Source: Streptomyces sp. NBC_01478
Lineage (GTDB): Bacteria; Actinomycetota; Actinomycetes; Streptomycetales; Streptomycetaceae
Assembly: GCF_036227225.1 (NCBI RefSeq)
Contig: NZ_CP109444.1
Coordinates: 11,947,501-12,011,500, forward strand
Direction of reading: 5' to 3'
DNA: 64,000 bases
Shown here in pieces: positions 3,041 through 41,477 of this stretch; the first letter of the stretch is position 1, and every line of letters begins with the position of its first letter. A program made the position numbers and the translations under genes. The notes below the pieces were generated by a model. The model was not told the DNA's origin, did no database searches, and was given only the letters and a program-made list of their open reading frames with translations.

Positions 3041-3934
3041 TGGATAGACCCTCGCACGTAGGAACTGGATGGACAGCGAAGAACGTGATCCGGCCGCGCT
3101 CACGGCGGACTGGCCCCCACATGGGTGGGGACTGGGCGATGCCCGCCGGCATGCGTTCAGACAGCCACTCGGACTGACCCCCACCGTGTTGGGACTGAAC
3201 GACAGAGCGATCAAGGCGACGAAGTCGAAGTGGGACTGACCCCCACGCGTAGAGACAGGACCCGACGTTGCAGACCTCGTCGGCGAACGGAATGGACTGA
3301 CCCCCACGCGTAGGGACGGGACGTCACCAGTCCCGCGCTCTCGGCATCCTTGAACGACTGACCCCAACGTGTAGGGACTGGGCTTGCAGTTCGACTCGCC
3401 CATGGTGGAGACGAACGAATGACCCCCACGCGCGTAGGGACTGGACGAACTCAAGACGCTGGGCGACTTGGGTGTAGAGGGCGGGCCTCTACGCGTAGGT
3501 ATTGGACACGATGGTGAGGGCTTGTGCGAGCGGTTCGCTAGATGGACCCTCATGCGTAGGGATTGGACCTCTGGGTGCCCTCCCACTTCACCAGGCCCGG
3601 AGATGGACCTCCACGCATAGGGACTGGACGATCACGCGGTCGGTTCGACCTTGGGGGTCTCGGACGGACCCCACGTGTGGGGATGAGACTCCTCGGCAGC
3701 GGTCGGCCCGGCCTGGTCTCATGACTGACCCCCACCTGTAGGGACGGGACCGGCGAAGGCGCCCGCCTCCTCGCGTACGCGGCGGACTGACCCCCAACTG
3801 TAGGGACGGGACTGCATCACGCCCGTCGCGGCGGCCACGGCCAAGGACTGACCCCCACCTGTAGGGACGGGACCGGCGAAGGCGACCTCGTGGTGGATGA
3901 GCAGGCGACTGACCCCCACCTGTAGGGACGGGAC
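3041..3934 (-). CRISPR. CRISPR array 1, about 15 repeats, subtype I-E-like
   Basis: Units of 61 bases: repeats of about 29 and spacers of 32-33. The clearest repeats are 3906-3934, 3845-3873, 3784-3812 and 3722-3750, which read almost identically with core CCCCCACCTGTAGGGACG on the plus strand. Further left the repeats drift (for example 3663-3689, 3602-3629, 3541-3568, 3481-3507) and the leftmost, 3041-3070 and 3107-3136, are very degenerate. Best conservation at the right end, next to the AT-rich leader, indicates leftward transcription. On the minus strand the repeat starts GTCC and ends GTC(C/G), with a short stem CCCTA/TGGGG, as expected for subtype I-E. The spacers look like coding DNA of phage or plasmid type, but no match could be tested. 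Confidence 0.93.
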
Positions 3935-4110
3935 CCTCGCTGACCTGCACGACTGTGACCGTGCAGAGAGGATTTTACTGTTTTTATGCGGGTGAGATGA
4001 GTTCTTCTTCGAAATCGTGCAGGTGCTGTGGGTCAGAGCCTGCACGAGCACGTGGTGGCCAGCTTTCGGTGGCGGTGCGGTCAGTGGAAGTGGTGGTGAC
4101 CTGCGCACCG
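3935..4110 (-). promoter_or_regulatory. CRISPR leader 1
   Basis: It starts directly after the last array 1 repeat and contains the AT-rich block GATTTTACTGTTTTTATG (about 3973-3990) within otherwise GC-rich DNA. The first 125 bases closely match leader 2 (5097-5222), including TGACCTGCACG and GTGGGTCAGAGCCTGCA. This duplication next to two arrays supports a leader/promoter role for leftward transcription. Confidence 0.75.
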
Positions 4111-4641
4111 CCCGGTCCTGGGCCGACGTACCTTTCCGCTCCGGTATGCAGACGCAGGTCTATGCCCATAGCGAGCAGCAGTTGTCCACATACGACCAGC
4201 GGCCTGCGTCCGTATCGCCGTCCGGCCACCGGCCCGGGGGAGGAGTCCGACGAGCCGCGACGACGACTCACCCCGTACGCCGAGCCGGCCAGGGCACGAT
4301 CACCTGCGCCGCTGCGGGCAAGACCATCTTCGCCGTTGCCCGAGAGTTCACCGACCGGTTGCGCGAACTCGCTGAGTACAGAGGATCGTGGCGTGCCGAC
4401 GGCTACCCCCAGCGGCCGCGGACAGCTTCGGGCACCGGATGGTCCGCGCGCCGCCGCAGTGCCTCCCGGTCCAGCCGGACCCCTCCTGGAAACGTGCGCT
4501 GACCTGTGGTGATGGCGGACCAGGTCTCTTTCTAGGCGGGACACTTGCGCGCAAAATGCCAGGACGCTTTCGTGTAAGTCTTGATAGCGGAGGAGCTGTT
4601 GAGCTGGAGTTTTGTGCTTGGAGCCAACACGGCTCGGGAGA
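4111..4641. other. Unassigned stretch between leader 1 and array 2
   Basis: About 530 bases without a convincing gene. A plus-strand frame around 4250-4390 has a protein-like patch (TITCAAAGKTIFAVAREF) but neither start nor end is credible, so it may be a gene remnant. Bases 4550-4640 are locally richer in A/T and lead into the degenerate end of array 2. Confidence 0.35.
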
Positions 4642-5096
4642 TCGAAGCCCTGCCCACGCGTGGGGACTGGCTGAGCTCGGTGACGGCGGCAAGTAGCCCA
4701 AGCAGACCCCCACGCGTAGGGACGGGACTTCAACAGCGCATCGACAGCGCTAAGCAGCTCGGGCTGACCCCCACGCGCGTAGGGACTGGACACCGCCGAT
4801 ACGCCCCGCGAAGCGGTTGACCAGGGCTGACCCCTACGCATAGGGACGGGATTGCCTCCAGGAAAGTGGATCACGAGCTCGTCGGGATTGACCCCCACGC
4901 GTAGGGACTGGACTGGCGTGGCTCCCGCTTCGACCATCCCGGCGCGGACTGACCCCCACGCGTAGGGACTGGACGGAAAGGGGCAGGCGCCGTGTAGAGC
5001 GGCCAGCGACTGACCCCCACGCGTAGGGACTGGACAGACGTGGCCACTATCCGGCCGGCGCCGCCGAGGACTGACCCCCACGCGTAGGGACTGGCC
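4642..5096 (-). CRISPR. CRISPR array 2, about 8 repeats, subtype I-E-like
   Basis: Repeats at about 4642-4671, 4700-4728, 4761-4791, 4824-4852, 4885-4913, 4946-4974, 5007-5035 and 5068-5096, spaced by 32-base spacers. The four rightmost are nearly identical with core CCCCCACGCGTAGGGACTGG on the plus strand; the leftmost is degenerate. The repeat lineage differs from array 1 in the loop bases (ACGCGT against ACCTGT) and in the end (CTGGAC against CGGGAC). Leader 2 follows at the right, so transcription is leftwards. Confidence 0.93.
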
Positions 5097-5223
5097 CCTT
5101 ACTGACCTGCACGGCCATGACCGCGCAGAGAAGATTTTACTGTTATTTGTGCGGGTGTGGGGGGTTTCCTCGATCTCGTGCAGGTGTTGTGGGTCAGAGC
5201 CTGCATGTGCACGAGATGGCCGG
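5097..5223 (-). promoter_or_regulatory. CRISPR leader 2
   Basis: Near-duplicate of leader 1: TGACCTGCACGGCCATGACC, then AGATTTTACTGTTATTTG, then the shared CTCGTGCAGGTGTTGTGGG region. The homology stops at about GATGGCC (5214-5220), where a truncated repeat of array 3 begins at once. The distal part of this leader therefore appears cut by the array 3 junction. Confidence 0.75.
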
Positions 5224-5915
5224 GCTGTAGGGACTGGACCTCCTGCGGCAGAACAGCGAGCGCGGTGCGGAGGACTGACCCCCACGGGTAGGGAGAGGAC
5301 ACCGTCGAGGGAGCGCTGATAGTCGTCGATCAGGACTGACCCCCACGCGTGGGGACTGGACATTCACCAGCTACGACCGGACGGAACTCCTCGGGACGGA
5401 CCCCCACTCTTAGGGATTGGACCTCGGCTGCAAGAACTCCAACCAGGTCGCCCACCGGTGGGACCCCACCGGGGACTGGGTTCCACTGCCCGATTGAGGC
5501 CATCCACGGTGCCCGATGGACCCCCACGTGTAGGGAAGGGAGAGGACCTGCTCGCTTTCGAGGTTGGGGCGGCGGGCGTGGGCTCCCCCCCTCGCGCGTG
5601 GGGACGGGACTACGGCAGCGAACAGGTGACGGAGCACCTGTCGGACAGACCCCCACATGTAGGGACGGCACTTCCGCCAGATCGACGACGGCTATGCCTT
5701 CGGCGACAGACCCCCACGCGTAGGGATTGGACGTGGGGAAGCTGGCCACGCTGATCGTTCCGGTGGACTGACCCCTACGCGCGTAGGGACGGGACACTGC
5801 CAAGATCCACGCGAGATCGATGCGGAGCGACAGACCCCCACGGGTGGGGAACGCGGGCTGCCGTGAGCACGAGCAGCGGGTCGGAGTCCGACTGACCCTC
5901 ACGGGTGGGAACGCG
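5224..5915 (-). CRISPR. CRISPR array 3, about 12 repeats including a half repeat
   Basis: Repeats at about 5224-5239 (right half only), 5272-5300, 5333-5361, 5395-5422, 5456-5480, 5517-5545, 5580-5610, 5643-5670, 5705-5732, 5764-5794, 5829-5855 and 5890-5915. The set is heterogeneous. The two repeats next to leader 3 read, on the minus strand, CGTTCCC(C)ACCCGTG(A/G)GGG, close to classical I-E repeats with their TTCCCC...GGGG hairpin. This supports minus-strand transcription for all arrays. The half repeat abuts leader 2 and marks a deletion or recombination junction. Confidence 0.9.
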
Positions 5916-6000
5916 CCTCGCTGGCCTGCGGCTCTGGAGCTGTCCGGAAGGATTTCGCTGTTCTTTTCTCATGGCAGGAGCCTTTCCATGGAAGCCTGAA
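5916..6000 (-). promoter_or_regulatory. CRISPR leader 3 (divergent copy)
   Basis: It begins CCTCGCTGGCCTGC, the same way leader 1 begins (CCTCGCTGACCTGC). A matching AT-rich block GGATTTCGCTGTTCTTTTC follows about 32 bases in, as in leaders 1 and 2. Beyond that the sequence diverges. It sits between array 3 and the rightward cas operon. Confidence 0.6.
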
Positions 6001-6881: not shown

Positions 6882-9737
6882 ATGGGCGTGGTCGAGGACA
6901 GCCGGCCCGGCGGGCTGGACCTGTCACTGTGGGGCAAGTACAGCCTGCTCTACGGCCTGGCCTACTCATTGCTGTTCCATCAGCTGGATGCGGCTGCGGT
7001 GATGGGGGAGTTGTGGGACCGGTACCTGACGCCCGCGCAGCGCCGGGTGATCTGCCGAGGACTGGGACTGGAGCCGGCCCAGGCGCGGTGCGAGGCCATG
7101 TTCCTGGCCGGCGCACACGACATCGGCAAGGCGGGCCGCTTCCAGATGTGCGAGCCGGGAGCATGGGCACAGGTCAGCGATGAACTGCGTGCGGATGCGG
7201 GGCCGTGGAGGCTGATACGGCACGAACGTGCCTCCATGCACACGGCCGTTGAACTCCTGGCGGATCTCGGATACCGGCTGGGAGGCAACACCAGCCCGGC
7301 GGTGCGCGCGGCCCAGATTCTCGGCGCCCATCACGGCCGCTATCTGCAGTGCGACCTCCTTGGAGCGGCCCGTCCCGAGCGGGTGCGTCTGGATCTCGGC
7401 GGCCCGTTGTGGCAGGACCTGCGCCGCCGCTACCTCGCCCAGGTCCGCTATCTGACGGGTGCCGGCACGCCGCCGCCCAGGATTTCCACCGAGGCCGCGG
7501 TGCTGCTGACGGGGCTGATCATGGTTGCGGACCGGCTGGTGAGCCAGCCTCATGTATGGATGCGGCGCGCGATGGCGCCGGCCTCGTGCGCACTGACGCA
7601 CTGGATCAATACCCGTCACCCGGCGGACGCGGACGCCGAAGAGGGGTGGGCCGCCGAGGTGGTGACCGCGTCCGGGCTGGAGCGGATCACTCTGCCCGAG
7701 GTGCCCTTCACCCAGGCCCATCCGCACACCACCGGCCCCAACCGGCTGCAGGCCTCGGTCATCGCCCAACTCGAGCCGGTGGTACGCGAGCAGGGAGCGG
7801 GCATCCTGGTGGTCACCGACTCCACCGGCGCCGGCAAGACGATCACAGGCCGGGAGGCCGCCCGGACCTTCAACCGCCACTGCGGCACCCGCGGGATGGC
7901 CGTCCTGCAGCCCACCACCGCCATCGCGGATGCCGCCTACGACGACCTCGTGGCCTACGTGGCCGCGCACCGTCCCCGGCGGGCCCCGGTGACACTGGTG
8001 CACAGCCACCCCTGGACCAGTGCCGCCTATCACGACAAACGGCTGCTGGAAGCCGGCGGCCAGCTGACCCTGGACGAGTACTTCGACGCATCACAGGACG
8101 GCGCAGGCCGTCCCGGACAACACGTCACGGTCCCGGACCCCTTTCTGCGCGGCTGGGACAGAGCGCTGCTGGCGCAGTTCACCGTCGCCACCATCGACCA
8201 GGCGCTGATGGCCGTGCTGCCGGTGCGCTACAGCGCGCTGCGGATGCTGGCCCTGTCCGGCCGCACCGTCATCCTGGACGAAGTCCACGTCGCCACCCCC
8301 TACATGCGGCGCCTCACGGCACGGCTCCTGCACTGGCTGGCAGCGCTGGGTACACCGGTCGTGCTGCTGTCCGCCACACTGGCGCCGCCCGTGGCCCGGG
8401 AACTGGTGCACGCCTATCTGGCCGGCGCCGGACTGAAGCCCGGCCAGCTGGACGGCCTGGACGTGGACGTGCCCTACCCGGGCTGGCTGTTTGCCGCGGC
8501 CCGCGACGGCGCCGTCACCCGTATCGACCCCGCCCAGGCCGCCGCCCACGTCACGATGACCCGCCGCCGACTGACGGTGCAGCACCAGCCCGTGCTCGCG
8601 GCCCGGCTCGGCGCCGTGGAACGGACCGTCGCCGACGGGGAACGGCTGCACCGCATCGCCGAGGAGAGCAGTCTCGTCCTGGCACACGGCGGCTGCATGA
8701 TCGTGGTCTGTGCCACCGTCGCCGACGCACAGGACACCTTCCGCCACCTCGCCCGCATGCCCTGGCCCAGGCCCCGGGAGAACCTGGTCCTGCTTCATGC
8801 CCGATTCCCCGGCCACCAGCGCGAAGCCATCACCCGGCGGGTACGCGCCCGGCTCGGCCCCGCCGGGACACGCCCCGAACGGCTGGCCGTGGTCACCACC
8901 AGCCTGCTCGACATGAGCCTGGACATCGACTGCGACCTCATGATCAGTGACCTGGCCTCGCTGTCCCGGCTGCTGCAGCGGGCGGGCCGGCTGTGGCGCT
9001 TCGAACGGCTGTGGCAGGAAGACGGCACAGACCGCCGCAGGCCGGGCTGGATCCTGGAGCGCGGGCCGCGTCTGACGGTACTGGCCCCAGTTGCCGACGG
9101 CCGCACACACCTCCCGCACTGGTGGGGCAGGGGAGAGCCGGCCTTCGAACTGCACGCAGCCGCACACCTGCTGGCGCAGACGCCCGCCCGCCCGCTCGAC
9201 CTGCCCGCCCAGCTCCCCGGCCTGCTGGAGACGGCCAGCACCCGCATCCCCGACACACTGGCCGCCCTGCACACCGCCTACCAGGCCGACCTGCAGCGCT
9301 ATGAACACCTCGGGCAGGAACAAGCCGTGCCGCCGCCCGCCCGCACCGGCTCCCTGGCTGATCTCTACCGTCATCCCACCACCGCCGGTGCGGCCCCCAC
9401 CCGGGAAGGCTCCCGCCCGCGGCGCCTGCTGGCCTGCTACCGCCAGCCGGACGGATCGCTCCACCTGGACCCGGCCGGCACCCAGCCCCTGCCCGACAGC
9501 CCCCGGCTGCCGGCGCCCGCCATCCGCGCGATCCTCGAACGCACCCTGGACGTCCCCGAGGACTGGCTCGCCGACGCCCCCGCACGTCCGCCCGAATCCT
9601 GGCGCCAGCATGCCCTGCTGGCGGACCTGACCCTGCTGATCCACGACGCCGCCGTCCCGGGCCCTGTCCGCTTCGGCACCCACCTGCTGCACCTCGATGC
9701 CCACCTCGGCCTCGTCCATGACGAGGCCCGGTCCTGA
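6882..9737 (+). CDS. cas3: Cas3 HD nuclease-helicase, subtype I-E
   Basis: A 951-residue protein that unwinds and degrades target DNA after Cascade binding. The N-terminal HD nuclease is complete by inspection: H33, H79-D80 (GAHDIGK), H114, H150-H151 (GAHHGRY) and D217 (VADRL). The SF2 helicase follows: Walker A DSTGAGKT near 313-320, DEVH at 466-469, SATL near 497, and a motif VI-like LLQRAGRLWRF. A C-terminal tail typical of Cas3 completes it. GGGGAGGGG lies 8-16 bases before the ATG. It heads the cas locus but is separated from cas8e by 488 bases, so cas8e may have its own promoter. An intact Cas3 argues for real DNA interference. This is unusual beside transposase genes, because guide-directed transposons typically lack Cas3. 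Confidence 0.96.
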   Translation: MGVVEDSRPGGLDLSLWGKYSLLYGLAYSLLFHQLDAAAVMGELWDRYLTPAQRRVICRGLGLEPAQARCEAMFLAGAHDIGKAGRFQMCEPGAWAQVSDELRADAGPWRLIRHERASMHTAVELLADLGYRLGGNTSPAVRAAQILGAHHGRYLQCDLLGAARPERVRLDLGGPLWQDLRRRYLAQVRYLTGAGTPPPRISTEAAVLLTGLIMVADRLVSQPHVWMRRAMAPASCALTHWINTRHPADADAEEGWAAEVVTASGLERITLPEVPFTQAHPHTTGPNRLQASVIAQLEPVVREQGAGILVVTDSTGAGKTITGREAARTFNRHCGTRGMAVLQPTTAIADAAYDDLVAYVAAHRPRRAPVTLVHSHPWTSAAYHDKRLLEAGGQLTLDEYFDASQDGAGRPGQHVTVPDPFLRGWDRALLAQFTVATIDQALMAVLPVRYSALRMLALSGRTVILDEVHVATPYMRRLTARLLHWLAALGTPVVLLSATLAPPVARELVHAYLAGAGLKPGQLDGLDVDVPYPGWLFAAARDGAVTRIDPAQAAAHVTMTRRRLTVQHQPVLAARLGAVERTVADGERLHRIAEESSLVLAHGGCMIVVCATVADAQDTFRHLARMPWPRPRENLVLLHARFPGHQREAITRRVRARLGPAGTRPERLAVVTTSLLDMSLDIDCDLMISDLASLSRLLQRAGRLWRFERLWQEDGTDRRRPGWILERGPRLTVLAPVADGRTHLPHWWGRGEPAFELHAAAHLLAQTPARPLDLPAQLPGLLETASTRIPDTLAALHTAYQADLQRYEHLGQEQAVPPPARTGSLADLYRHPTTAGAAPTREGSRPRRLLACYRQPDGSLHLDPAGTQPLPDSPRLPAPAIRAILERTLDVPEDWLADAPARPPESWRQHALLADLTLLIHDAAVPGPVRFGTHLLHLDAHLGLVHDEARS

Positions 9738-10225: not shown

Positions 10226-11821
10226 ATGCCCTCCCTGCCGGCCTACCCCGTTGACCTGCGCCCCTGCATCCCGGTGCGCCTGGACGAGCAGCACGAGGTG
10301 TTCGGGCTGCGCGAGGTACTCATCCAGGCACACCGCATCGAGGACCTGGCGCTGCCGCTGCCGCCCGCGCATTCCGCGCTGCTGCGGATGCTGACTGCCA
10401 TCACCGCCGAACTCACCGGCCTGGACGACCCGGACCTGTCACTGGAGGAGTGGCACGAGCGGCGAGGCGACCTGCTGAGCAGCGGCCGCGGACTGAAAGC
10501 CCAGGACGTCCACGACTACTGCGACGCCTCCACGTGGGACCTCTACCACCCGAGCCGCCCCTTCCTGCAGGACCCGCGTCTGACCGAGCAGTGCACCAAG
10601 ACCTCCGGCATCAACAAACTCGTCTTCGGCCGGCCCGCCGGCAACAACCTTCAATGGCTCAGTGTCCACACCGACACCGCCCCGTGGCCTCTGTCCAGCG
10701 ACGAGGCCTTCTGGCACCTGCTGATCCAGCACTTCTACGGTGCCGCCGGCCGCTGCACCACCCGCAGCGCCGGCCCCCACACCAGCGGCCGGGCCACCGC
10801 CGGCCCCCTGCGCTCCACCCTCTCCTTCCACCCTCAGGGCGCCACCCTCCTGGAGACACTCCTGATGCACCAGTTCCCCTACCGCGGCACCCCCCAGCAC
10901 TCCGCGGACACCTGTCCCTGGCAGGAATCCACACCACCCGACCCCGTCCACGCCCCGCCCCCGGTGACCTGGCCCAAACGCCTGCTCACCGGCCGCTCCC
11001 GGCACGCCGTGCTCCTGATCCCCAACGACGACGGCAGCGCCGCCACCGACTGCTACCTCACCTGGGCGACCCAGCACCCCGCCTACCCGGCTACCGACCC
11101 CTACCTCATCATCGACACCCACACGCAGGCCAAGGCCGAGGACCGCGACCGGCCCCGCCGCGCCGATGCCGACCGTGCCCTGTGGCGCGACCTGGACGCC
11201 CTGCTGCTCGCCGGCGACGAGAGCTCCGCCCAGCGCCGCCCCGCCGTCTTCGACACCCTCAACGACCTGCCCGCCCCCGTACGGGGGCGGCTGCGGGTGC
11301 GGGTGTGCGGCTTCGACCAGGACGGCCGCACCACCAACCGGATCTGGTACACCGCCCTGACCCCGTCCATCTGGAACCAGGCCGAAGAACACGACCCTGT
11401 TGCCGCCCGCCGGATCGCCTCCTGCCACCAGGCCGCCGAACACCTGGGCGCCCTCCTGCGCTCCTGCGCCAACACCGCCTGGAACGAGACCTCCACCCCG
11501 GCCGCCGCCGGCGGCGCACCGCCCGCCCCGCGCCGGGGCCGGCCCACCAGCCGGTGGGCGAGGGAGTCCCTGGCCGATTACTGGCCGCACGCCGAGCAGG
11601 TGTTCTGGGACCTCGTCCACCAGGACCCGGACGAGGCGAGCGACCCCTATCCGGCCTTCGCCCGCACCGCCGTGGCCGCCCTGCGCCAGACCGTCCGCCC
11701 CGACCTGGCCCGCCACCGGATGGCCGGCCCCGCCCTGGCCCGCGCCGTCCGCGCCCTCATGGCCGCCGCGGCTCCTGCCGCCACCGCCCGCAAGAAAGCA
11801 GCCCGCCGTGCCCAGCCGTGA
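10226..11821 (+). CDS. cas8e: Cas8e (Cse1/CasA), Cascade large subunit
   Basis: 531 residues, the usual size for Cas8e. The start at ATG 10226 is set by GAAGGAGA 7 bases upstream; an open frame extends further but lacks a binding site. Family-like features are the N-terminal PVDLRPCIPVRL...FGLREVLIQAH stretch (the Cse1 opening in which the last strand leads to HxI), a PSRPFLQDPRL segment, and a C-terminal helical bundle rich in Arg and Ala. In the I-E complex this subunit reads the PAM, locks the R-loop and recruits Cas3. The stop codon overlaps the start of cse2. PAM-contact residues cannot be assigned by eye. Confidence 0.92.
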   Translation: MPSLPAYPVDLRPCIPVRLDEQHEVFGLREVLIQAHRIEDLALPLPPAHSALLRMLTAITAELTGLDDPDLSLEEWHERRGDLLSSGRGLKAQDVHDYCDASTWDLYHPSRPFLQDPRLTEQCTKTSGINKLVFGRPAGNNLQWLSVHTDTAPWPLSSDEAFWHLLIQHFYGAAGRCTTRSAGPHTSGRATAGPLRSTLSFHPQGATLLETLLMHQFPYRGTPQHSADTCPWQESTPPDPVHAPPPVTWPKRLLTGRSRHAVLLIPNDDGSAATDCYLTWATQHPAYPATDPYLIIDTHTQAKAEDRDRPRRADADRALWRDLDALLLAGDESSAQRRPAVFDTLNDLPAPVRGRLRVRVCGFDQDGRTTNRIWYTALTPSIWNQAEEHDPVAARRIASCHQAAEHLGALLRSCANTAWNETSTPAAAGGAPPAPRRGRPTSRWARESLADYWPHAEQVFWDLVHQDPDEASDPYPAFARTAVAALRQTVRPDLARHRMAGPALARAVRALMAAAAPAATARKKAARRAQP

Positions 11822-12398
11822 CGACTACCGCGCCCACTGCGACGCCTACGTCGCCGCCGTCCGTGACCTGTGCACCGCCCCGGAGAGCAGAGCCGCTCTC
11901 GGGTCGGGCCGCGGCCGTCCCGTCGACGACTGCCAGCGCCTGCACCCCTTCCTCAGCCGCCTCACCCGCAACCACCCCGACCGGCGCGCCCACTACACCC
12001 TCGCCGGCCTCATCGCCCACGAACGCCCCGACCGCCACCCCACCACCCCCGCCCCAGACCCCGACCATCCCCGCGCCTGGCGGTCGCGCCCCAGCCTCGG
12101 CGCCACCCTGGCCCGCGCCGCACACGGGCGGACCGACGGCCCCTTCGAGAGGGAACTGCAGGTCCTCATCCGCCTGTCCGAGGACCTGCTCCACCGGCGC
12201 CTGCCCGGCCTGACCCGCCAACTGCTGGGCAGCGGCCATCCGCCGGACTTCGCCGTCCTGCTGGCCGACCTCACCTACTGGAGCAGCAACCGTCCCAGCG
12301 TCGCCACCCGCTGGCAGGACGACTTCTACCTCTTCACCCCCACACCCACTCCGCCCCCGGCCTCTTCGGCCGGCACACAAGAGACGAGCAGCACATGA
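11808..12398 (+). CDS. cas11: Cse2/Cas11 small subunit of Cascade
   Basis: 196 residues, predicted mainly helical and rich in Arg, as Cse2 proteins are. The segment RLHPFLSRLTRNHPDRRAHY near the N-terminus and the downstream QVLIRLSEDLLHRRLPGL stretch fit the family, whose members bind the displaced and target strands along the Cascade belly. Start at GTG 11808, overlapping the cas8e stop by 14 bases. The stop overlaps the cas7e start in an ATGA. The order cas8e-cse2-cas7e-cas5e-cas6e is the standard I-E order and supports the call independently of sequence. Confidence 0.88.
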   Translation: MPSRDDYRAHCDAYVAAVRDLCTAPESRAALGSGRGRPVDDCQRLHPFLSRLTRNHPDRRAHYTLAGLIAHERPDRHPTTPAPDPDHPRAWRSRPSLGATLARAAHGRTDGPFERELQVLIRLSEDLLHRRLPGLTRQLLGSGHPPDFAVLLADLTYWSSNRPSVATRWQDDFYLFTPTPTPPPASSAGTQETSST

Positions 12399-13576
12399 CA
12401 ACCAACCCGCACCTGGCCCGCTACATCGACCTGCACGTCCTCCAGGACATTCCCGCCTCCTGCCTCAACCGCGGCGAGCACAACGACCCCAAGACCCTCA
12501 TGATCGGCAACACCCAGCGCGCGGCCATCTCCAGCCAGTGCGCCAAGCGCGCAGTCCGGCACGCGCTGGAGACCCTCCTGAGCGAACCCGCCGCCCGCAC
12601 CCGCCGGCTGCCTCCCCGCCTGGCCGCCGCCCTCCGCGCGGCCGGCTGGCCCGAGGACCTCGCCCGCTTCGCCGCCGCCCAGGTCCCCCGCAGTGCCACC
12701 GCCGAAGGCCTGGCCACCGACCCGGGCGCCGAGGGCCGCACCCTGGCCATGCTCTACGTCCCCGACGACACCATCCTCGACGACCTCGCCGCTCTGTGCG
12801 CCCGTCACCGCACCGCCCTGGAAAAGGGCATGGCCAAGGAAGCCAAGTCCACCGCGAAAACCGGGGCCTACCTGCCCTCCGGCGACGTGGTGAGCCTGCT
12901 GTGCGCACGCACCGCCAGCATCAGCCTCTTCGGCCGCTTCCTCGCCGGCCTCGGTGACGCCCACGTCGACGGCGCCGTCCAGATGGCCTGGGCCTTCACC
13001 ACCCACACCAGCGACCCGCAGCCCGACTTCTTCACCGCCTACGAGGACTGGGCCGAGCCCGGCGAGGCCACCAGCGCCCACCTGGACACCGCCTACCTCA
13101 GCGCCGGGGTCTTCTACCGCTACGTCAGTGTCAACCTCACCGAACTGACCGCCAATCTCGACGGAGACGCATCCCGGGCCATCGCCCTGCTCGGCGCGTT
13201 CACGGACATGTTCATCTCCACCCTGCCGCAGGCCAAGAAGAACTCCACCGCCCCGCACACCCTGCCCGACACCGTCCACTACGTCGTCCGCGACCGCCGC
13301 CCCGTCTCCTACGCCTCCGCCTTCCACCAGCCCGTCAAAGCCGACAGGCAGGGCGGCCACCTGGCCCCCACCCGCAGCATCCTGTCCCAGCACGCCGGCA
13401 ACATCACCCAGCTGACCGGTACCCGTCACCGCATCGCCCACGGCCATGTCACCCAGGCCCCCGAACCGCTCGAACACCTCGGCCCGCGCCACGCCAGCTA
13501 CGACGACCTCGTCGACGCCGTCACCGCCGCGGCCGCCGCCCCCGCCACCGCACCCCGCTCCTACACGGCGGCATGA
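12395..13576 (+). CDS. cas7e: Cas7e (Cse4/CasC), Cascade backbone
   Basis: 393 residues. The N-terminal IDLHVLQDIPASCLNRGEH and the following segments with PKT, QRAAISSQCAKRAVR match the highly conserved opening of Cas7e, whose RRM-like fold polymerises along the crRNA spacer. The thumb region around GDASRAIALLGAF is also present. Starts in the ATGA shared with cse2 and ends in an ATGA shared with cas5e, so translation is probably coupled to give the high stoichiometry (six copies) of this subunit. Confidence 0.95.
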   Translation: MTTNPHLARYIDLHVLQDIPASCLNRGEHNDPKTLMIGNTQRAAISSQCAKRAVRHALETLLSEPAARTRRLPPRLAAALRAAGWPEDLARFAAAQVPRSATAEGLATDPGAEGRTLAMLYVPDDTILDDLAALCARHRTALEKGMAKEAKSTAKTGAYLPSGDVVSLLCARTASISLFGRFLAGLGDAHVDGAVQMAWAFTTHTSDPQPDFFTAYEDWAEPGEATSAHLDTAYLSAGVFYRYVSVNLTELTANLDGDASRAIALLGAFTDMFISTLPQAKKNSTAPHTLPDTVHYVVRDRRPVSYASAFHQPVKADRQGGHLAPTRSILSQHAGNITQLTGTRHRIAHGHVTQAPEPLEHLGPRHASYDDLVDAVTAAAAAPATAPRSYTAA

Positions 13577-14424
13577 CCATGCCCGCCACCCCCGCCGACA
13601 CCAACACCGATGCCGTCCGCACCGCACCGGGCGGGCTCCTCCTGCGCCTGGCCGGCGTCCTGAGTGCCTACGGCACCGACACCGCCTTCACCCGCCGCGA
13701 CACCCAGCCCCACCCCACCCGCTCCGCCCTCATCGGCATGTTCGCCGCCGCCGCAGGCCGCCCCCGCCACCAGGCCCTCGACCCCCTCGACCTGCCGGGC
13801 CGCCCCCGCTACACCGACCTGGCGTTCACCATCCGCGTCGACACCCCCAGCACCCTCTACACCGACTTCCACACCACCGGCAGCGGCCGTTCCCGCCACG
13901 AACAACTGCGCACCAGCAAGGGAGAACGGCGCCAGGAAGGCAAAACCACCCACGTCTCCCACCGCCACTACCTCACCGACGCCTGCTTCACCGTCGCCGT
14001 CCAGGGCCCCGCCGCCCTCATCGCCTACCTCGCCCACACTCTCGAACACCCCTGCTTCGCCCTCTACCTGGGCCGCCGCGCCTGCGTCCCCGACGAACCC
14101 CTCGTCCTCACCCCACCCCTGAGCGACCCGCTCACCCACCTGCGTCACCACGCCCCCCTCACCCTGCACACCCCACCCGACCCGGAAGCAGACCGCATCC
14201 CGGTCACCTTCTGGCATGACACCCCACCCCCCAACCCCACCGCCCACCGCGAACTCGCCGACAACCCCGTCGACTTCACCCCCCACCACCGCCGGTACAC
14301 CGTCCGCTCGCTGTGGACCACCACCGAACGCCTGCCCGCCGCCCTCTACGCCGGAGCCGACCCTCTGCCCGCTCTGACCGCCTACCGCCACCGACTGGAG
14401 CAGCCGTGCCCACCGTCACCCTGA
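13573..14424 (+). CDS. cas5e: Cas5e (CasD), crRNA 5'-handle binding subunit
   Basis: 283 residues. The N-terminal pattern LLLRLAGVLSAYGTD, then R-D-T-Q-P-H-PTRSALIGMFAAAAGRPR, is the diagnostic Cas5e opening. A glycine- and proline-rich loop follows and a strand near PRYTDLAFTIRVD. Cas5e caps the crRNA 5' handle and contacts Cas8e. The start overlaps the cas7e stop (ATGA), and the end overlaps the cas6e start by 19 bases. Confidence 0.95.
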   Translation: MTMPATPADTNTDAVRTAPGGLLLRLAGVLSAYGTDTAFTRRDTQPHPTRSALIGMFAAAAGRPRHQALDPLDLPGRPRYTDLAFTIRVDTPSTLYTDFHTTGSGRSRHEQLRTSKGERRQEGKTTHVSHRHYLTDACFTVAVQGPAALIAYLAHTLEHPCFALYLGRRACVPDEPLVLTPPLSDPLTHLRHHAPLTLHTPPDPEADRIPVTFWHDTPPPNPTAHRELADNPVDFTPHHRRYTVRSLWTTTERLPAALYAGADPLPALTAYRHRLEQPCPPSP

Positions 14425-15056
14425 CCCGCGTCCGCCTCAACCTCGCCCACCCCACGGTCCGCCGCGACCTGGCCGACTACACCGCCCTGCACCGCACCGT
14501 CATGCGGCTGATGCCCGACGACCTCGGCCCCCACCCCCGCCAGAGGGCCGGCGCGCTCTTCCGCCTCGAACGCGACGACCACCAGCCCCTCCTGCTGGTG
14601 CAGAGCTGCATCCCGCCCGACCTCACCGGCCTGCCCGACCACTATGGCAGCGCCGAGGCCCGCGACTTCACCCCCGTGCTCAGCGCCCTCACCCCGGGCC
14701 GCCCCGTCCGCTACCGCATCACCGCCAACCCCTCCACCCGCAGCCGCCGCCGGCCCGGCCCCGGCGAGAAACCCCTGCCCAAACACGGCCGCGTCCTCGC
14801 CCTCGACGACACAGCCGCCCTCGACTGGTGGCACCGCCGCGCCATGGAGGCCGGCCTGCACCTGCACGCCACCACCATGGAACCCAAGCCCTTCCGCCGT
14901 CCCCGCCGCGGCCGGCCCGGCCCCGTCCACCGTCTCCTCCAGTTCGACGGAACCGCCCGCATCACCGACCCGGCCGCCCTCACCGACGCACTGCTCAACG
15001 GCATCGGCCGCGCCAAGTCCTACGGCGCCGGCCTGCTCAGCCTCGCCCCCGCCTGA
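14406..15056 (+). CDS. cas6e: Cas6e (Cse3/CasE), crRNA-processing ribonuclease
   Basis: 216 residues starting at GTG 14406. The segment DYTALHRTVMRLMPDD places H29 where the catalytic histidine of Cas6e lies. The C-terminal GIGRAKSYGAGLLSL is the family's glycine-rich RNA-binding loop. It should cleave at the 3' base of the repeat hairpin and stay bound to the crRNA 3' end. The stem CCC(T/C)A/TGGGG seen in all three arrays is a plausible substrate. It overlaps cas5e by 19 bases and is followed after 14 bases by the transposase gene, in the place where cas1 is usually found. Confidence 0.94.
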   Translation: MPTVTLTRVRLNLAHPTVRRDLADYTALHRTVMRLMPDDLGPHPRQRAGALFRLERDDHQPLLLVQSCIPPDLTGLPDHYGSAEARDFTPVLSALTPGRPVRYRITANPSTRSRRRPGPGEKPLPKHGRVLALDDTAALDWWHRRAMEAGLHLHATTMEPKPFRRPRRGRPGPVHRLLQFDGTARITDPAALTDALLNGIGRAKSYGAGLLSLAPA

Positions 15057-15070
15057 CCCACGGACCGCCC

Positions 15071-16677
15071 ATGCCCGCACAGCGCCCCGCCGACGAGGAA
15101 CGCGCCGCCTCCGTCACCCACCTCCTCGCCCTCGAAGCCGCCGGCACCCTCACCCCCGACGACGTGAAAACCGTGGCCGCCGCCCACGGCCGCACCCCGA
15201 AGAGCGTGCAACGCTGGATGCAGCGCGCCCGCGACAACAACGGCCACTACCAGCGCAAACAGCGTGACGCCGCCGAAGTGACCCCGCGCATGGAAGACGA
15301 GCTGATCCGGTGGTGCGGCAGCATCGCCGCCGCCCACAGCGCCCTGCAGGACGACGGCGCCATGCCGCTGAGCTACTCCGCTTTCTACTGCGCCGTCACC
15401 CGCACCTACCCGCCCAGCTTCCTCGCCGGCCTGCGCGCCGGTGAAAAAGCCCGCCGACGCTACGACCTGCACGGCTCCCACCGCGAACGCGGCCGCCGCA
15501 ACGACGCCTGGGAAGCCGACCACAAGGAAGCCGACGTCTGGGTCAACGTCGCCGGCACTGCCCGCAAACCCTGGCTGACCCTCTTCGTCAACTGCTCCAA
15601 CTCCGGCATCTGCGGCTGGGCCATCACACCCACACCCCCAGCAGCCAAGCCATCATCGTCGCCATCCACAGCGCCCTGCAGCGCGGCGGCCCGCACGGAC
15701 CCTTCGGCGGAATCCCCAAACTCGTCCGCGTTGACCGCGGCGCCGACTTCCTCAGCAAAGCCGTCGCCCAGACCATGGGCGCCCTCGCCGTACGCCGCGT
15801 GGAACTGCCGCCCCGCCGACCCGACCTCAAGCCCTACGTCGAATCCCTCAACGCGGCCTTCAAAGACATGCACTTCCGCGGTATGCCCGGCTACACCCAC
15901 TGCCCCGACCCCGACCCCGCAGCCAAACCCAAACCCCCGCCCCTCGAAGACCTGCTGACCTTCGAGGAATTCACCACCCGCACCCGCGACTTCATTCACC
16001 GCTGGAACCACGAGCACCGCATTCGCAGCCTCGGCAACCGAACCCCCCTGCAAGCCTGGCAGGCCGACCGCACCGTCATCCACGACCTGCCCCCCGGCGC
16101 CCTCAACCGCTCCCTTCCCCTCGTCAGCCGTACCTTCACCATCACCGGCACCGGCATCGACTGGAACGGCCGCGTCTACCTCGAAACCTGGATGCGCGAC
16201 CTCATCGGCAACTGTGTGCGCCTGCGCCACCTGCCCGGCCGCTACGACACCGTCGAGGTCTACGACGCCGACACCGACCACCGCCACGGCACCGCCCGCT
16301 GGACCAACGCAGCCAGCTCTCACCTACTCAAGCGCGTCAAAGAGGACAACGCGGCCGACGCCGCCCGCCTCAGAGAAGCCCTGGAAAGACGCCCTCAGAT
16401 CGTCCGCGAACGCTTCGCGGCCACCGCCACACCGGCCCCGCCGCAGCCCCTCACCACCCTCACCACCGAACAAGCCCGCCAGAGACTGCGTGACCCCCGC
16501 GACCCGCACGCCGCCACCCCCGAAAACCTCCCCGAACCCACCGGCTCCTGGACCCACACCGAACGCCCGCAACCCCCGCCGGCCACCGACGACGACCTGC
16601 CCGCCCCCACCAGCTCCTGGCTCACCACCCCGCCCACTCTCAGCCCCCAGCCACCGCAACAGGAAGACCAGTCGTGA
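15071..16677 (+). CDS. tnsB: TnsB/TniA/Mu-like DD(35)E transposase, interrupted by one frameshift
   Basis: The first frame (15071 to about 15639) encodes an N-terminal helix-turn-helix (near residues 28-50) and NDAWEADHKEADVWV, typical of the Mu/TniA/Tn552 group, with D150 as first catalytic residue. The second frame carries on with VDRGADFLS (about D221) and YVESLNAAFK (about E257): exactly 35 residues lie between D and E. A C-terminal beta-barrel-like region (RTFTITGTGIDWNGRVYLE) and a Pro-rich tail follow. The frames join near the C-run at 15635-15639: one missing base, a sequencing error or a -1 ribosomal frameshift would each restore about 535 residues. The enzyme should join 3' ends to target DNA. 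It overlaps the ATPase gene by 4 bases and lies 14 bases after cas6e. Confidence 0.85.
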
Positions 16678-17447
16678 ACGCCAGCAGTGACGGCCACTAC
16701 CTCGACCTGCCCAACGCCCGCCTCGTGCCCACCCGCACCGTGCTGCGCACCCAGAAACAGCTCCAGTCCGCCATCAAGCTCCGTGCCATGCTCTGCATCC
16801 ACGGCGGCGTCGGACTGGGTAAAACACTCACCGTCCGCACCTGCCTGCGTGACCTGGCCTCTGACAACACCCTGTTCTTCCAGTTCCACCGCCACTGTCC
16901 GCTCGGCGACATTCAGAAAGCCGTCGCCGCGGCCCTCGACATCCCGGACACCACGCGCAGCCTCACCCCACGCATCCGCGCAGCCTTGGCCGAACGCCCC
17001 TACGTCCTCGTCTTCGACGAGACTCAAGGGCTCACCACTGACGCGCTCGAGTGGGTACGTCCCCTCTGGGACACCGACGACAACCGCCCGACCATCATCT
17101 TTGTCGGCGCCGAAGACACCCGCAGGCACCTCCGACGCCGGGCGGCCCTCGCCTCACGCGTCACCCAGTGGCCGCGCTTCTCACCGCTGCATCCCACCGA
17201 AGTCGTCCAGCACATGCCCACCTACCACCCGGTGTGGAGCAAGGTCGGTGAGGAGGACCTGCTGTGGCTCGACGACGCGGCCTGTCGCGGCAACTTCCGC
17301 GACTGGGCCAAACTCACCAGCGCCATCCAGGAAATCCTTACCGAACGGGGCCAGCCCCTCGACGCTTTCACCCGCGCTATCGCACGCGAAGCCCTGGCCA
17401 CATTCGACCCGTCCGACCTCCACCTCCCGCCCGATGAAGACCTGTGA
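16674..17447 (+). CDS. tnsC: TnsC/TniB/MuB-like AAA+ transposition ATPase
   Basis: 257 residues, closer in size to MuB, TniB and the short TnsC of type V-K systems than to Tn7 TnsC. Walker A GGVGLGKT lies at 44-51 and Walker B VLVFDE at about 111-116, with a sensor-1-like IIFVGAED near 141-148 and a basic patch RHLRRRAALASRV after it. Such proteins form ATP-dependent filaments on DNA, choose or mark the target and activate the transposase. The GTG start overlaps the transposase stop (GTGA) and AGGAAGA lies 6-12 bases upstream. It is the last gene of the operon; a hairpin terminator follows. No tniQ-like gene adjoins it. Confidence 0.88.
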   Translation: MNASSDGHYLDLPNARLVPTRTVLRTQKQLQSAIKLRAMLCIHGGVGLGKTLTVRTCLRDLASDNTLFFQFHRHCPLGDIQKAVAAALDIPDTTRSLTPRIRAALAERPYVLVFDETQGLTTDALEWVRPLWDTDDNRPTIIFVGAEDTRRHLRRRAALASRVTQWPRFSPLHPTEVVQHMPTYHPVWSKVGEEDLLWLDDAACRGNFRDWAKLTSAIQEILTERGQPLDAFTRAIAREALATFDPSDLHLPPDEDL

Positions 17448-17827: not shown

Positions 17828-20011
17828 TCAGCTTCTGTTCGTTTGTAGTGGACCGACTAGTTCCTGGAAGTGCCGGTCGGAACGGAGGGTGGTGAAGCAG
17901 GGGTCGGTTTGTGCGTTCTCTCTGTCGGCGTCGGTGACGAGGGCGCGTCGGAGGTCCTCAAGCGCGTAGTTCCGCTGCTGGCTGCGGTCGTGTTCTTCGA
18001 GGTCCTGCCGTTTGGCGAGGAACACGTGTAGGCAGGCGTGGTCGTAGGCCAGCCGCGGAGAGGCGGACAGATCGTCATGGGGGTGCTGTCCTGCCTTCGC
18101 CCTCGGCTTGACATCGTCTGACAGCGCATCGAGGCAGTCCACGAGGTTGAGAGCGTAAGGGTGCATCGCTGCTTGCTGGCGGCATAGTTCTTTGCGTTTC
18201 CAAGAGGTGATGGCGGTGTCGCACAAACGGCTGAGTTTTGTCGCGGATTTGCGCGCGCTGGTCAGCATCGAGGCGGCCTGTGTGGCTGGGGTGCCTCCTT
18301 CAATTGCTGTGATGTAAGCGTTGAGCAACTGGGTCGCGCTGCTGTAGAGCACCCGGATCTTCAGCGGCATCCACCCCTCTTCGTTGTCGGAGACTTTGCA
18401 GAGCTTGGAACGGGTGTATTGCTGGTCGATGTCCCGGGTGAACGCTTCGAAGTCTGTTTCTGCGGCGGGCTGTTGATCGTAGTTGGCCCACAGGTACTCA
18501 AAGCGGGCCAGTTCGTTGTCGGGGTCCTCGTCGACGGCCTTGGCAAGGAGCTGGACACGCGTGGCAACGCGGGTTTCGTCGTCGGCGAGCAGCGATCTGC
18601 TCTTCGCGATCACCTGAAGGGCGACGCTCTTCCACTGGCGGGCCCCGTACAGGCCGTCTTCGAGCTCTTGGTGCACCGCGCTGAGGTGCACCAGGATGAA
18701 GGCGGCGGCGCCGGTGAGCATCTGCGCCCTGGCGCGATCCGAGTCGGAATCTGCGGGGAGTTTCAGGTCTGCCCGGCTGAACACTGCACTCGCAGCGTGT
18801 TGCCCGTTGCGGGACAACGCGGTCGAGGCCCGGTTGTCGTCCACGAGAGTGACCCTGGCACGCCAGGTGAGATCAGGTCTGAGGGCGAAGAACAGGCGGG
18901 ACAACGCCCCCACGACTTTCCCCGCGGGCAGGACGCTGAGCTCCTCGACAGGGATCTGGCTCAGCGGCGTGCGGCTGCCCGGTGCGGACGTGGCTTGGTG
19001 CAGGGCCGGGGCCTCCGTGCCAAGGTCTTTCATCCGGGCGAGCAGGTAGTCGGAGGACGCGGCGTTCACCTCCCCGTCCGCCTGCTGCACCTCGACCTGG
19101 AGACGGAGATTCTGACCAAGTGCAGCGGCGGTTAGAAGCACACCGACCGCGACGAGAGCGATATGCACAAGCATCAGCCGCACGTCGTAGGCGCCCACGC
19201 AGGCCGTCCAGCCCAGAACACACCCGGCTGCCGTCACAACGCCCAGGGCAAGCAGCAGAGCCCGCCAGTGCTCCCACGCCGTGCTGCGCGCACCCGCGAA
19301 TACCAGACCTACCGCAACAACGCCGACCACGAGAAGCACCACTGCGCCGATCCAGCACTGCGTCCAGGTGGGCCGGAAAGGGTTGAACATGGCAAACAGC
19401 GGCGTCATCACCGATGCCGCGATCAACAGAACCAAACCCAGCGAGCCAGCGGCACGTCGAACGCCGGCCGTCCACGCGACCGCATCCACTTTCACCAGCA
19501 CGCGCGAACACACGCCGCTCAGGGCGTAGAGGACCAGCAACCCGATCGCGGCCAGCACAGCAAGACGCCCTACCGGCAGCACCCAGTCCGTATAGAAGCG
19601 ATTCCCGTTCGATACCGCCGTCGGCAGCGGGCGGCTCTTCAGGTCCGCCACTCGCGCGATACCTGCAGCCGCCGCAGCACTGCCTGCATCGAGACCCAGG
19701 GCTTGACGGAACTTGTCCGCAGCCTCGCCGAGATTCCCGGAACGGATGGCCAGCTGCCCGGCAGTGACGAGCTCCGCTGCCTCCTGACGCGCCTTTGCCA
19801 CGAGCCGCAGACCCTCCACGGCGCAGCTCTGGTCGCCGTCGGTTGTTACCGACTCGTACAGCTCCTGCGCCCGGTCCAGCGAGCCCGCCAGCCGGTGACC
19901 ATCAGCGGCCTTGCAGGTCTGCTGTGCGGCCGTGTCGGTTGGCAATGCCGCGAGAACCGTGGTGAAAACGACGATCAGGATGGCTAGAGCCCGAATCAGA
20001 CGTTTGTACAT
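17828..20011 (-). CDS. Multi-pass membrane protein with TPR-like repeats, function unknown
   Basis: 727 residues from ATG 20011, chosen because the frame further upstream is not protein-like and a hydrophobic signal-anchor (ALAILIVVFTTVLAAL) begins right after it. Next comes an extracytoplasmic helical region with TPR-like features (residues about 30-120). Several membrane segments follow (VLPVGRLAVLAAIGLLVLYA, GLVLLIAASVMTPLF, WIGAVVLLVVGVVAVGLVF, ALLLALGVVTAAGC, LVHIALVAVGVLLTAAAL). A large soluble C-terminal domain of helices ends the protein. No enzyme motif found. It converges on the cas-tns operon and is not obviously related to it. Confidence 0.8.
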   Translation of the reverse strand: MYKRLIRALAILIVVFTTVLAALPTDTAAQQTCKAADGHRLAGSLDRAQELYESVTTDGDQSCAVEGLRLVAKARQEAAELVTAGQLAIRSGNLGEAADKFRQALGLDAGSAAAAAGIARVADLKSRPLPTAVSNGNRFYTDWVLPVGRLAVLAAIGLLVLYALSGVCSRVLVKVDAVAWTAGVRRAAGSLGLVLLIAASVMTPLFAMFNPFRPTWTQCWIGAVVLLVVGVVAVGLVFAGARSTAWEHWRALLLALGVVTAAGCVLGWTACVGAYDVRLMLVHIALVAVGVLLTAAALGQNLRLQVEVQQADGEVNAASSDYLLARMKDLGTEAPALHQATSAPGSRTPLSQIPVEELSVLPAGKVVGALSRLFFALRPDLTWRARVTLVDDNRASTALSRNGQHAASAVFSRADLKLPADSDSDRARAQMLTGAAAFILVHLSAVHQELEDGLYGARQWKSVALQVIAKSRSLLADDETRVATRVQLLAKAVDEDPDNELARFEYLWANYDQQPAAETDFEAFTRDIDQQYTRSKLCKVSDNEEGWMPLKIRVLYSSATQLLNAYITAIEGGTPATQAASMLTSARKSATKLSRLCDTAITSWKRKELCRQQAAMHPYALNLVDCLDALSDDVKPRAKAGQHPHDDLSASPRLAYDHACLHVFLAKRQDLEEHDRSQQRNYALEDLRRALVTDADRENAQTDPCFTTLRSDRHFQELVGPLQTNRS

Positions 20012-20297
20012 GAACAAGATCAAAGCTCTAGTTAGCTGCCGTTCGCGCGCAGGCGCACCGTCAGCAGGTGCCGAATCCCCCTTCGCGCGGATGCTGCCAC
20101 TGGCAGCCGCACGCCTGCTCACATGGCACAGGCCGTTATGGGCGACATCGCGATGTCGCCGACGACCGGCTCCCGATAGATGCGTATGGGTTGCGGACCG
20201 GCTGTTGAGCTGGAGATTTTCGATGCGCGCACGCAGGGCGCACCCGATGGACACCTGTCTGGTGAGCGTGCATGACGCTCCCGGTACGGTGGCGCGG
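20012..20297. promoter_or_regulatory. Upstream region of the membrane protein gene with a perfect 20-bp palindrome
   Basis: The palindrome GGCGACATCGCGATGTCGCC at 20141-20160 is perfect and lies about 130 bases before the start of the leftward membrane protein gene. It is a candidate regulator-binding site. No gene was found in this stretch. Confidence 0.45.
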
Positions 20298-40037: not shown

Positions 40038-40275
40038 GTCGCTTGACCTTTCCTCGGTTATGCGGCCGTGGTGCAGCGTGTGCGGGGGTGGTCCCGGATT
40101 GGGGCAGCATCCCTCTTTGTCTGTGCTGGTGGCGCCGGTGGACGCCACCACTGCTGCAACGTGCCTTGGTTTAGAGATATTACGGACAGGCGGAGCTGGT
40201 TGTTCCTCTTGAGTGGCGTCCGCTGTTCGGCGCGGAGGCCAGGGCCATGCTGTCTGGTGCCTTTGGGGGCCTGCC

Positions 40276-41464: not shown

Positions 41465-41477
41465 GTCGGATGGTGGA

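What the first reader, a model, noticed from the sequence alone, without database searches (positions are those of the whole stretch)
10226..17447. Subtype I-E Cascade operon that continues into a TnsB/TnsC-like transposase pair
cas8e, cse2, cas7e, cas5e, cas6e, a DD(35)E Mu/TniA-type transposase and a MuB/TnsC-type AAA+ ATPase are arranged head-to-tail with overlaps or a 14-base gap, so they are very probably one transcriptional unit. Guide-directed Tn7-like elements that I know of use I-F3, I-B, I-D and V-K effectors; an I-E Cascade fused into an operon with TnsB/TnsC would be a different branch. I cannot exclude that such I-E loci are already reported. No tniQ was found, so how Cascade would recruit TnsC is open.
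Basis: partly seen in the sequence, partly recalled or inferred. Interest (0 to 1): 0.95.

Follow-up and report, generated by a model that had tools for sequence, protein, structure and literature searches.

The report
CRISPR system wired to transposase genes
A Streptomyces chromosome end carries a CRISPR weapon whose usual memory-making genes are replaced by two transposon genes; the kind is already described, but its guides turn out to aim mostly at the end regions of rivals' linear DNA, nearly always facing the tip.

Summary
cas3, cas8e, cse2, cas7e, cas5e, cas6e, a TnsB-like DDE transposase and a TnsC/MuB-like ATPase form one operon, with CRISPR arrays upstream. Two additions: the window's tnsB is frame-broken, and the locus lies in the chromosome's terminal inverted repeat. 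The order cas6e-tnsB-tnsC recurs in 15 relatives, so it is no IS insertion. The kind is in print: Streptomycetaceae I-E with tnsB/tnsC instead of cas1/cas2 (Faure 2019, via reviews), now variant I-E5, tied to telomeric transposons (Hsieh 2025, not readable here). Print disagrees on TnsB/TnsC: CAST or substitute adaptation module. I add: (1) guides hit linear Streptomyces replicons near their ends, with a 5'-GAA/CAA PAM; 26 of 30 matched guides point the PAM-distal side to the nearest end, and a second, smaller set agrees; (2) guides of six of 13 elements hit tnsB/tnsC of CRISPR-less telomeric transposons; (3) many arrays grow at the leader end although 16 of 18 genomes hold no Cas1; (4) close pairs lose homology 4-7 bases after tnsC, so no conserved transposon end was found. 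I favour interference against rival linear replicons with TnsB/TnsC as adaptation module (0.42) over RNA-guided transposition (0.38).

The parts
3043..3935 (-). CRISPR array 1 (28-nt degenerate repeats, mostly 33-nt spacers); crRNA strand is minus, leader-like stretch to its right (3936 to about 4060)
   Evidence: strand from the PAM side and the shared leader-like stretch
4645..5097 (-). CRISPR array 2, leader-like stretch to its right (5098 to about 5225)
5273..5918 (-). CRISPR array 3, strongly degenerate
6882..9737 (+). cas3 (HD nuclease + helicase, open frame)
   Evidence: Cas3_HD 3e-32, Cas3-like_C_2 1e-29; Cas3e 6e-134
10226..11821 (+). cas8e (cse1)
11808..12398 (+). cse2 (cas11e)
12404..13576 (+). 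cas7e
13573..14424 (+). cas5e
14415..15056 (+). cas6e
15071..16677 (+). tnsB-like DDE transposase gene, frame-broken near 15620-15640 in this genome; in one frame in 16 of 17 relatives compared
   Evidence: the open relative in L041 matches solved V-K TnsB (1.8e-10) and Mu-transpos_C
16674..17447 (+). tnsC/MuB-like AAA+ ATPase with Walker A (GGVGLGKT) and Walker B (DE)
   Evidence: its family profile matches solved MuB (1.2e-6) and ShTnsC (1.4e-3)

Best explanation
This is a member of the I-E5 variant. Cascade with an intact Cas3 uses crRNAs from the minus strand of the arrays to find protospacers flanked by 5'-GAA or CAA, mostly in the outer tens of kilobases of linear Streptomyces replicons, including the tnsB and tnsC genes of CRISPR-less telomeric transposons and the terminal helicase gene. 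The PAM faces the replicon interior, so Cas3, which runs away from the protospacer on the PAM side, would travel inward and destroy the replicon. TnsB-TnsC stand where cas1-cas2 normally stand and most likely took over spacer acquisition, feeding on DNA near replicon ends. Shown here: operon, PAM, target location, orientation, leader-polarised growth of many arrays, absence of Cas1 in most hosts. Inferred: interference activity, Cas3 direction (established for E. coli I-E, recalled), and the adaptation role. In this strain the broken tnsB means either that the transposase is lost or that the assembly has a base error; the interference genes are whole.
For: 15 relatives with cas6e-tnsB-tnsC. 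Cas3 is found in 10 of 11 genomes asked: open in 7, one TGA inside the match in 2, split in 1; so interference genes are mostly kept, while PMC12669027 says that most CAST effectors are inactivated (some I-D are not). TTC/TTG on the PAM side in 23 of 28 protospacers read (slack of up to two bases), against 1.9% in the same stretches. 154 of 189 kept plasmid matches lie within 60 kb of an end, 87 expected for even spread; 26 of 30 matched spacers are telomere-facing, p = 6e-5. In a second set 14 spacers (11 after joining shared ones) have a match within 300 kb of a contig end and all are telomere-facing. No full-length self-target for the window's arrays. Leader-side repeats near-identical and distal ones decayed in many arrays; S. 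ipomoeae and HM190 share two inner spacers while their leader-side ones differ. No Cas1 in the own genome nor in 15 of 17 other genomes (one assembly asked twice). Homology ends 4-7 bases after the tnsC stop in two pairs of 87-92% identity.
Against: No experiment; nothing shows that a DDE transposase adds spacers. Cas1 could have acted in earlier hosts or from visiting plasmids; its rarity in I-E5 hosts (2 of 18) is not significantly different from the genus (36 of 121), p = 0.15. PMC12669027 files it as a CAST. Fixed guide orientation is also what directional RNA-guided insertion would favour, and all five I-E5 loci for which the nearest end is informative are transcribed towards it. The G300 element goes against the orientation rule (0 of 3). 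Some arrays show no polarity (e.g. L111, L112 second array, L096 second array), and a few leader-side spacers are shared between elements (L109 2944 with L111, L112b 2915 with L109 and HM190).
Confidence: 0.42

Rival explanations
1. CAST: Cascade recruits TnsC without TniQ, and TnsB inserts a telomeric element on the PAM-distal side of the protospacer. Because guides face the telomere, every insertion lands between the protospacer and the replicon end in one orientation.
For: Named so in PMC12669027 (passages), citing Hsieh 2025. Guide orientation and locus orientation towards the end fit directional insertion. TnsB resembles V-K CAST TnsB. Sister TnsBC genes without cas sit a few kb from chromosome and plasmid ends.
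Against: No ends found; homology between close copies stops at the tnsC stop codon and upstream at the arrays. A working Cas3 would cut the target that is to receive the element. No spacer of the window's arrays matches its own genome in full outside the arrays; matches in flanks of other elements are of spacers from other elements. G300 guides are reversed.
Confidence: 0.38
2. Ordinary defence with orientation from primed adaptation: Cas1-Cas2 acting in trans plus Cas3 running inward from a first guide yields more guides of the same orientation; TnsBC is a conserved partner with another role.
For: Polarised arrays and a PAM are normal for Cas1-Cas2; two I-E5 hosts do hold a Cas1 match, and Cas1 is not significantly rarer there than in the genus. 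Strand bias after priming is established for I-E (recalled).
Against: Cas1 missing in 16 of 18 genomes; matches concentrate in the outer part of the replicon rather than along it; 87 spacers of ordinary I-E arrays gave no match within 300 kb of an end where 91 I-E5 spacers gave 14, a weak contrast because only four candidates per genome were scored.
Confidence: 0.15
3. Transposase and ATPase are a passenger insertion with no link to the CRISPR genes.
For: tnsB is broken here.
Against: Conserved order in 15 relatives, one TnsC group at 100/98 support.
Confidence: 0.02

Closest known systems
Type I-E5 variant (Makarova et al. 2025, PMC12669027, passages read; Hsieh et al. 2025 Science eadp1973, not held, not read)
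   Same: I-E Cascade, Cas3 with HD domain, no TniQ, setting near ends of linear chromosomes; tnsB/tnsC as partners
   Different: The window copy has a frame-broken tnsB and lies about 160 kb from the chromosome end; whether guide orientation is described in Hsieh 2025 could not be checked
Streptomycetaceae I-E with tnsB-tnsC as substitute adaptation module (Faure et al. 2019, via PMC12231136 and PMC8730458, passages read)
   Same: cas3-cas8e-cse2-cas7-cas5-cas6-tnsB-tnsC, no cas1-cas2, arrays present, no ends found
   Different: As reported in the reviews, that work argued from varied spacer lengths and missing ends; here spacer targets, PAM and leader-polarised repeats are added
CasMu-I and CasMu-V (PMC10910872, passages read)
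   Same: CRISPR effector joined to a Mu-type DDE transposase; no TniQ mentioned in that text
   Different: Those use I-A or V effectors that lost their nuclease and have identified ends; here I-E with Cas3
End-located TnsB-TnsC loci without cas (12 of 20 regions read), most with a second ATPase
   Same: TnsB and TnsC homologous (about 35-45% identity); in complete replicons the genes point to the nearest end
   Different: No cas genes; mostly 5-30 kb from the end; they are among the targets of I-E5 guides

Membership tests
I-E5 variant | I-E effector genes with cas3 carrying an HD domain | tested here: met
I-E5 variant | tnsB and tnsC directly after cas6e, no cas1-cas2 | tested here: met
   (tnsB frame-broken in this genome)
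I-E5 variant | no TniQ/TnsD with the locus | tested here: met
   nearest TniQ match megabases away
I-E5 variant | association with telomeric transposons | tested here: inconclusive
   locus in the terminal inverted repeat, 160-167 kb from the end; TnsBC are sisters of end-located loci; no element ends identified
I-E5 variant | sequence match to the published I-E5 loci | not tested
   Hsieh 2025 not held
CAST (RNA-guided transposon) | defined left and right ends with TnsB sites and target-site duplication | tested here: inconclusive
   looked for and not found: homology of close pairs stops 4-7 nt after tnsC and at the arrays upstream; an end far away, e.g. in the telomere, is not excluded
CAST (RNA-guided transposon) | guide matching a site next to the inserted element | tested here: not met
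   no full-length match outside the arrays in the own genome (arrays in the window only)
CAST (RNA-guided transposon) | guide-dependent insertion | not testable with these tools
   needs an experiment
CRISPR adaptation module | polarised growth of arrays at the leader end | tested here: met
   (many of 22 arrays, not all)
CRISPR adaptation module | TnsB-TnsC needed for spacer addition | not testable with these tools
   needs an experiment

The most novel reading that the evidence does not exclude
I-E5 is an adaptive immune system of chromosome-end elements in which a DDE transposase pair (TnsB-TnsC) acquires spacers without Cas1-Cas2, drawing them from the ends of rival linear replicons on one strand only, so that each guide sends Cas3 inward and wipes out competing telomeric transposons and linear plasmids.
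Probability: 0.3. Interest if true: 0.93.

Novelty: new member of a known kind. Interest (0 to 1): 0.6.

Why it matters
Two published readings of these loci disagree about what the transposase genes do. The guide map found here makes the question testable: telomere-facing, PAM-flanked guides against subtelomeric genes, in arrays that grow in mostly Cas1-free genomes, predict different outcomes for a transposon, for a Cas1-free adaptation machine and for plain interference. If TnsB-TnsC acquire spacers, that would be a second origin of CRISPR memory from a transposase. In either case the guides record a conflict between elements at the ends of linear bacterial DNA.

Tried and rejected
Rejected: recent IS insertion (conserved order in relatives). 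Rejected: a programmed frameshift in tnsB as a general feature, since 16 of 17 relatives compared give one continuous match. Looked for element ends by comparing close loci: no sharp end shared by different flanks. Looked for homing or self guides: one apparent self-match in L098 is followed by a repeat and so lies in another array; six matches in flanks of I-E5 loci (L097, L101, L096, L104, two in L041) are of spacers from other elements.

Failed or weak controls: the three searches with ordinary I-E arrays against plasmids were swamped by repeat-to-array matches and give no usable count. An HM190 array query was swamped by an IS between its arrays and was not counted. The joined-spacer search scored only four candidates per genome, so its test/control contrast is weak. 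Structure prediction of one TnsC alone was useless (pLDDT 38).

Rows dropped before the count: 3 of 34 (not in a spacer), 8 of 60 shown (array or multi-piece matches, one non-actinobacterium, one record labelled circular), 8 of 60 shown (array or multi-piece), 2 of 33, 1 of 12 (the record itself), 3 of 15. Records beyond the 60 shown (24, 6) were not counted. Topology was looked up for 28 places only. One site is shared by two related elements (L097 13508 and L098 13460); without it 25 of 29. G300 spacers are counted as they fell, against the rule.

Second set: I re-aligned all 178 joined spacers without gaps to 36 fetched places (26 of the 30 loci, after leaving out four that lie in CRISPR arrays, and ten places, which I picked from I-E5 rows; nine of them lie within 160 kb of a contig end and were chosen after their strand was known). 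Other rows were not re-read. 14 I-E5 spacers reach 26 identical bases within 300 kb of a contig end; three pairs among them are shared or nearly shared between elements. One of the 14 (L107r 9136) lacks the PAM and may be chance. A gapped match of L109 2280, facing away and without PAM, does not reach the criterion. Three control matches (two spacers) are 0.8 Mb or more from an end and lack the PAM.
Full report
What is there. The window is 11947501-12011500 of a one-contig, 12,124,816-base genome. A second copy of the locus lies at the other end at a mirrored distance (166312-167085 minus, 11957726-11958499 plus), so it sits in the terminal inverted repeat of a linear chromosome. From left to right there are degenerate CRISPR arrays (3043-5918), cas3, cas8e, cse2, cas7e, cas5e, cas6e, tnsB and tnsC. 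A further array lies at the left edge of the window and beyond it. The stretches to the right of arrays 1 and 2 resemble each other and look like leaders, which puts the crRNA on the minus strand. The PAM agrees (below).

tnsB is broken here. Its two halves lie in different frames, and the left copy of the locus matches them in the same way. Of 17 I-E relatives compared, 16 give one continuous match and L066 changes frame elsewhere.

Relatives. The scan of public genomes with a TnsC alignment gave 18 loci; 11 of them hold cas6e-tnsB-tnsC in order (L033, L034, L035, L036, L037, L039, L040, L041, L043, L046, L047). L045 has cas genes and tnsB-tnsC but no cas6e match; the rest are contig ends, fragments or partial loci. 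Of 20 further regions read, 7 hold cas genes with tnsB-tnsC; three repeat L035, L036 and L037, so four are new (L054, L066, L067, L068). Twelve hold TnsB and TnsC relatives without cas (one, L065, was cut before tnsB), most with a second ATPase, and one is a remnant (L070). In one search, 133 of 392 Streptomyces genomes matched the TnsC profile at E up to 0.001, some weakly, and many of the cas-less ones sit 5-30 kb from both ends of chromosomes or linear plasmids. In trees the 14 I-E TnsC proteins form one group (100/98) apart from both ATPases of the cas-less loci; for TnsB one split also suffices, with weaker support (62/100).

Family of the proteins. The TnsC profile finds solved MuB (1.2e-6) and V-K TnsC (1.4e-3); TnsB of HM190 finds V-K TnsB (1.8e-10) and weakly Tn6677 TnsB. 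Cas3 of the window keeps HD and helicase profiles. Cas3 was found in 10 of 11 relatives' genomes: open in 7, with one TGA inside the match in 2, split in 1.

Literature. PMC12231136 and PMC8730458 (passages) report Faure et al. 2019: Streptomycetaceae I-E loci with tnsB-tnsC in place of cas1-cas2, no transposon ends, and the proposal that the transposase is a substitute adaptation module. PMC12669027 (passages) names I-E5 a CAST without TniQ, tied to telomeric transposons, with an active HD domain, citing Hsieh et al. 2025, which is not held. PMC10910872 (passages) describes CasMu systems. Word searches within PMC10293859, PMC11656645 and PMC13228271 gave nothing on the I-E variant except a citation of Hsieh 2025 in the last. 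I saw nothing on guide orientation in the listings of searches, few of which aimed at it, and the key paper could not be read.

What the guides aim at. The window's arrays against 72,556 plasmids gave 140 records at E up to 1, 130 of them Streptomyces, and 34 at E up to 0.06, all Streptomyces. Against 50,697 phages there were nine weak matches (E 0.9), and against the own genome no full-length match outside arrays. The same plasmid search was made for arrays of G117, G090, G252, G300 and the own upstream array. Targets include the terminal helicase about 2 kb from the end, HTH regulators, and genes named transposase, Mu transposase or TniB. Of 28 protospacers read base by base, 23 are followed by TTC or TTG on the plus side (19 and 4), three by TAC, one by CTC and one by TCG, with a slack of up to two bases where the match stopped short; TTC/TTG make up 1.9% of trinucleotides in these stretches. 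In crRNA sense the PAM is 5'-GAA or CAA. 27 of the 28 looked-up places lie on records labelled linear.

Position and strand. 189 kept matches of 30 spacers (dropped rows are listed under tried and rejected): 154 lie within 60 kb of an end against 87 expected for even spread; the median over spacers is 7.7% of the replicon length from the end. 26 of 30 spacers have their PAM-distal side to the nearest end (p = 6e-5). The targeted genes run both ways relative to the spacer, so gene strand does not explain it. By element, all matches counted: own (window plus upstream array) 9 of 9, G117 8 of 8, G252 6 of 6, G090 3 of 4, G300 0 of 3; among matches within 60 kb the own element has 7 of 8. Conserved subtelomeric genes are over-represented in databases, so position is weaker evidence than orientation.

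Second set. 91 spacers of eight further I-E5 elements and 87 of three ordinary I-E arrays with cas1 were searched together in 73 mostly complete genomes (four candidates scored per genome). Re-aligned to 36 fetched places (how they were picked is told under tried and rejected), 14 I-E5 spacers, 11 after joining shared ones, have matches within 300 kb of a contig end, and all 14 are telomere-facing; 13 of them carry a TTC, TTG, TTT or TAC beside the match at one place or more. No control spacer has a match within 300 kb of an end; three control matches (two spacers) lie 0.8 Mb or more inside and lack the PAM. Spacers of six of 13 elements match tnsB or tnsC of the cas-less end-located loci: G117, G252, S. 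coacervatus, CB01373, G090 and HM190. A spacer of the own upstream array matches genes annotated TniB-family ATPase about 8 kb from plasmid ends.

Array growth. In many of 22 I-E5 arrays (183 repeats) neighbouring repeats differ strongly at the far end and little or not at all near the leader (mean mismatch 8.1 for the leftmost two steps, 4.3 for the rightmost two); 88% of repeats are distinct against 30% in seven control arrays. S. ipomoeae and HM190 share two inner spacers and differ at the leader side. Against this, some arrays show no polarity, and a few leader-side spacers are shared between elements (L109 2944 with L111; L112b 2915 with L109 and HM190). Cas1 is absent in the own genome and in 15 of 17 other genomes (asked 18 handles, but G335 and G395 are one assembly; G194 holds only a remnant locus). 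The genus background is 36 of 121 with Cas1; the difference is not significant (p = 0.15).

Ends. The window and S. coacervatus (about 87% identity) part 5 bases after the tnsC stop; G117 and G252 (89-92%) part 7 and 4 bases after it. Upstream, the same pairs share only array and leader stretches and the run into cas3. I could not find a conserved end. Five I-E5 loci with an informative nearest end (own, G090, HM190, G252, G300) are transcribed towards it; G117 lies in mid-chromosome.

Reading. Cascade, Cas3, PAM and guides point to working interference against linear replicons. For TnsB-TnsC two readings stay open: adaptation (for: polarised arrays in mostly Cas1-free genomes, missing ends, position of cas1-cas2) and directional insertion (for: guide and locus orientation, kinship with end-located transposons and V-K TnsB). 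I put 0.42 and 0.38 on them. The finding itself is a new member of a known kind with a broken tnsB; the guide map is the part worth following.

Noticed in passing
window 17828-20254 (-) and 21592-23748 (-): Two large reading frames right of the operon; the second has TPR matches, the first no Pfam match.
   Followed up: no
window 39837-44717; L041 11661-14686; also L035, L036, L039, L040, L043, L044, L045: A UvrD-like helicase and neighbouring genes without Pfam match recur beside I-E5 loci of several genomes and 22 kb to the right of the one in this window; perhaps a two-gene defence pair.
   Followed up: partly
G000:C1:11946522-11947555 (L094 16660-17412): Another array of the same repeat family at the left edge of the window; one of its spacers matches TniB-type ATPase genes about 8 kb from linear plasmid ends.
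   Followed up: yes
G007:C1:5277346-5281074 (L059): An end-type TnsC'-TnsB-TnsC locus in the middle of a one-contig assembly; perhaps the contig was opened or joined at the wrong place.
   Followed up: no
L066 10260-11800: tnsB of the G090 element also changes frame, at another place than in the window.
   Followed up: partly
NZ_CP134205.1 about 274148-275235: A Streptomyces plasmid carries DNA matching the G117 arrays at 89% in four pieces over about 1.1 kb, so an I-E5-type array may ride on a plasmid.
   Followed up: no
window 4390-4489: A 99-base stretch between arrays 1 and 2 matches genes of three Streptomyces plasmids at 83-86%, within about 50 kb of a record end; it is not a spacer.
   Followed up: no
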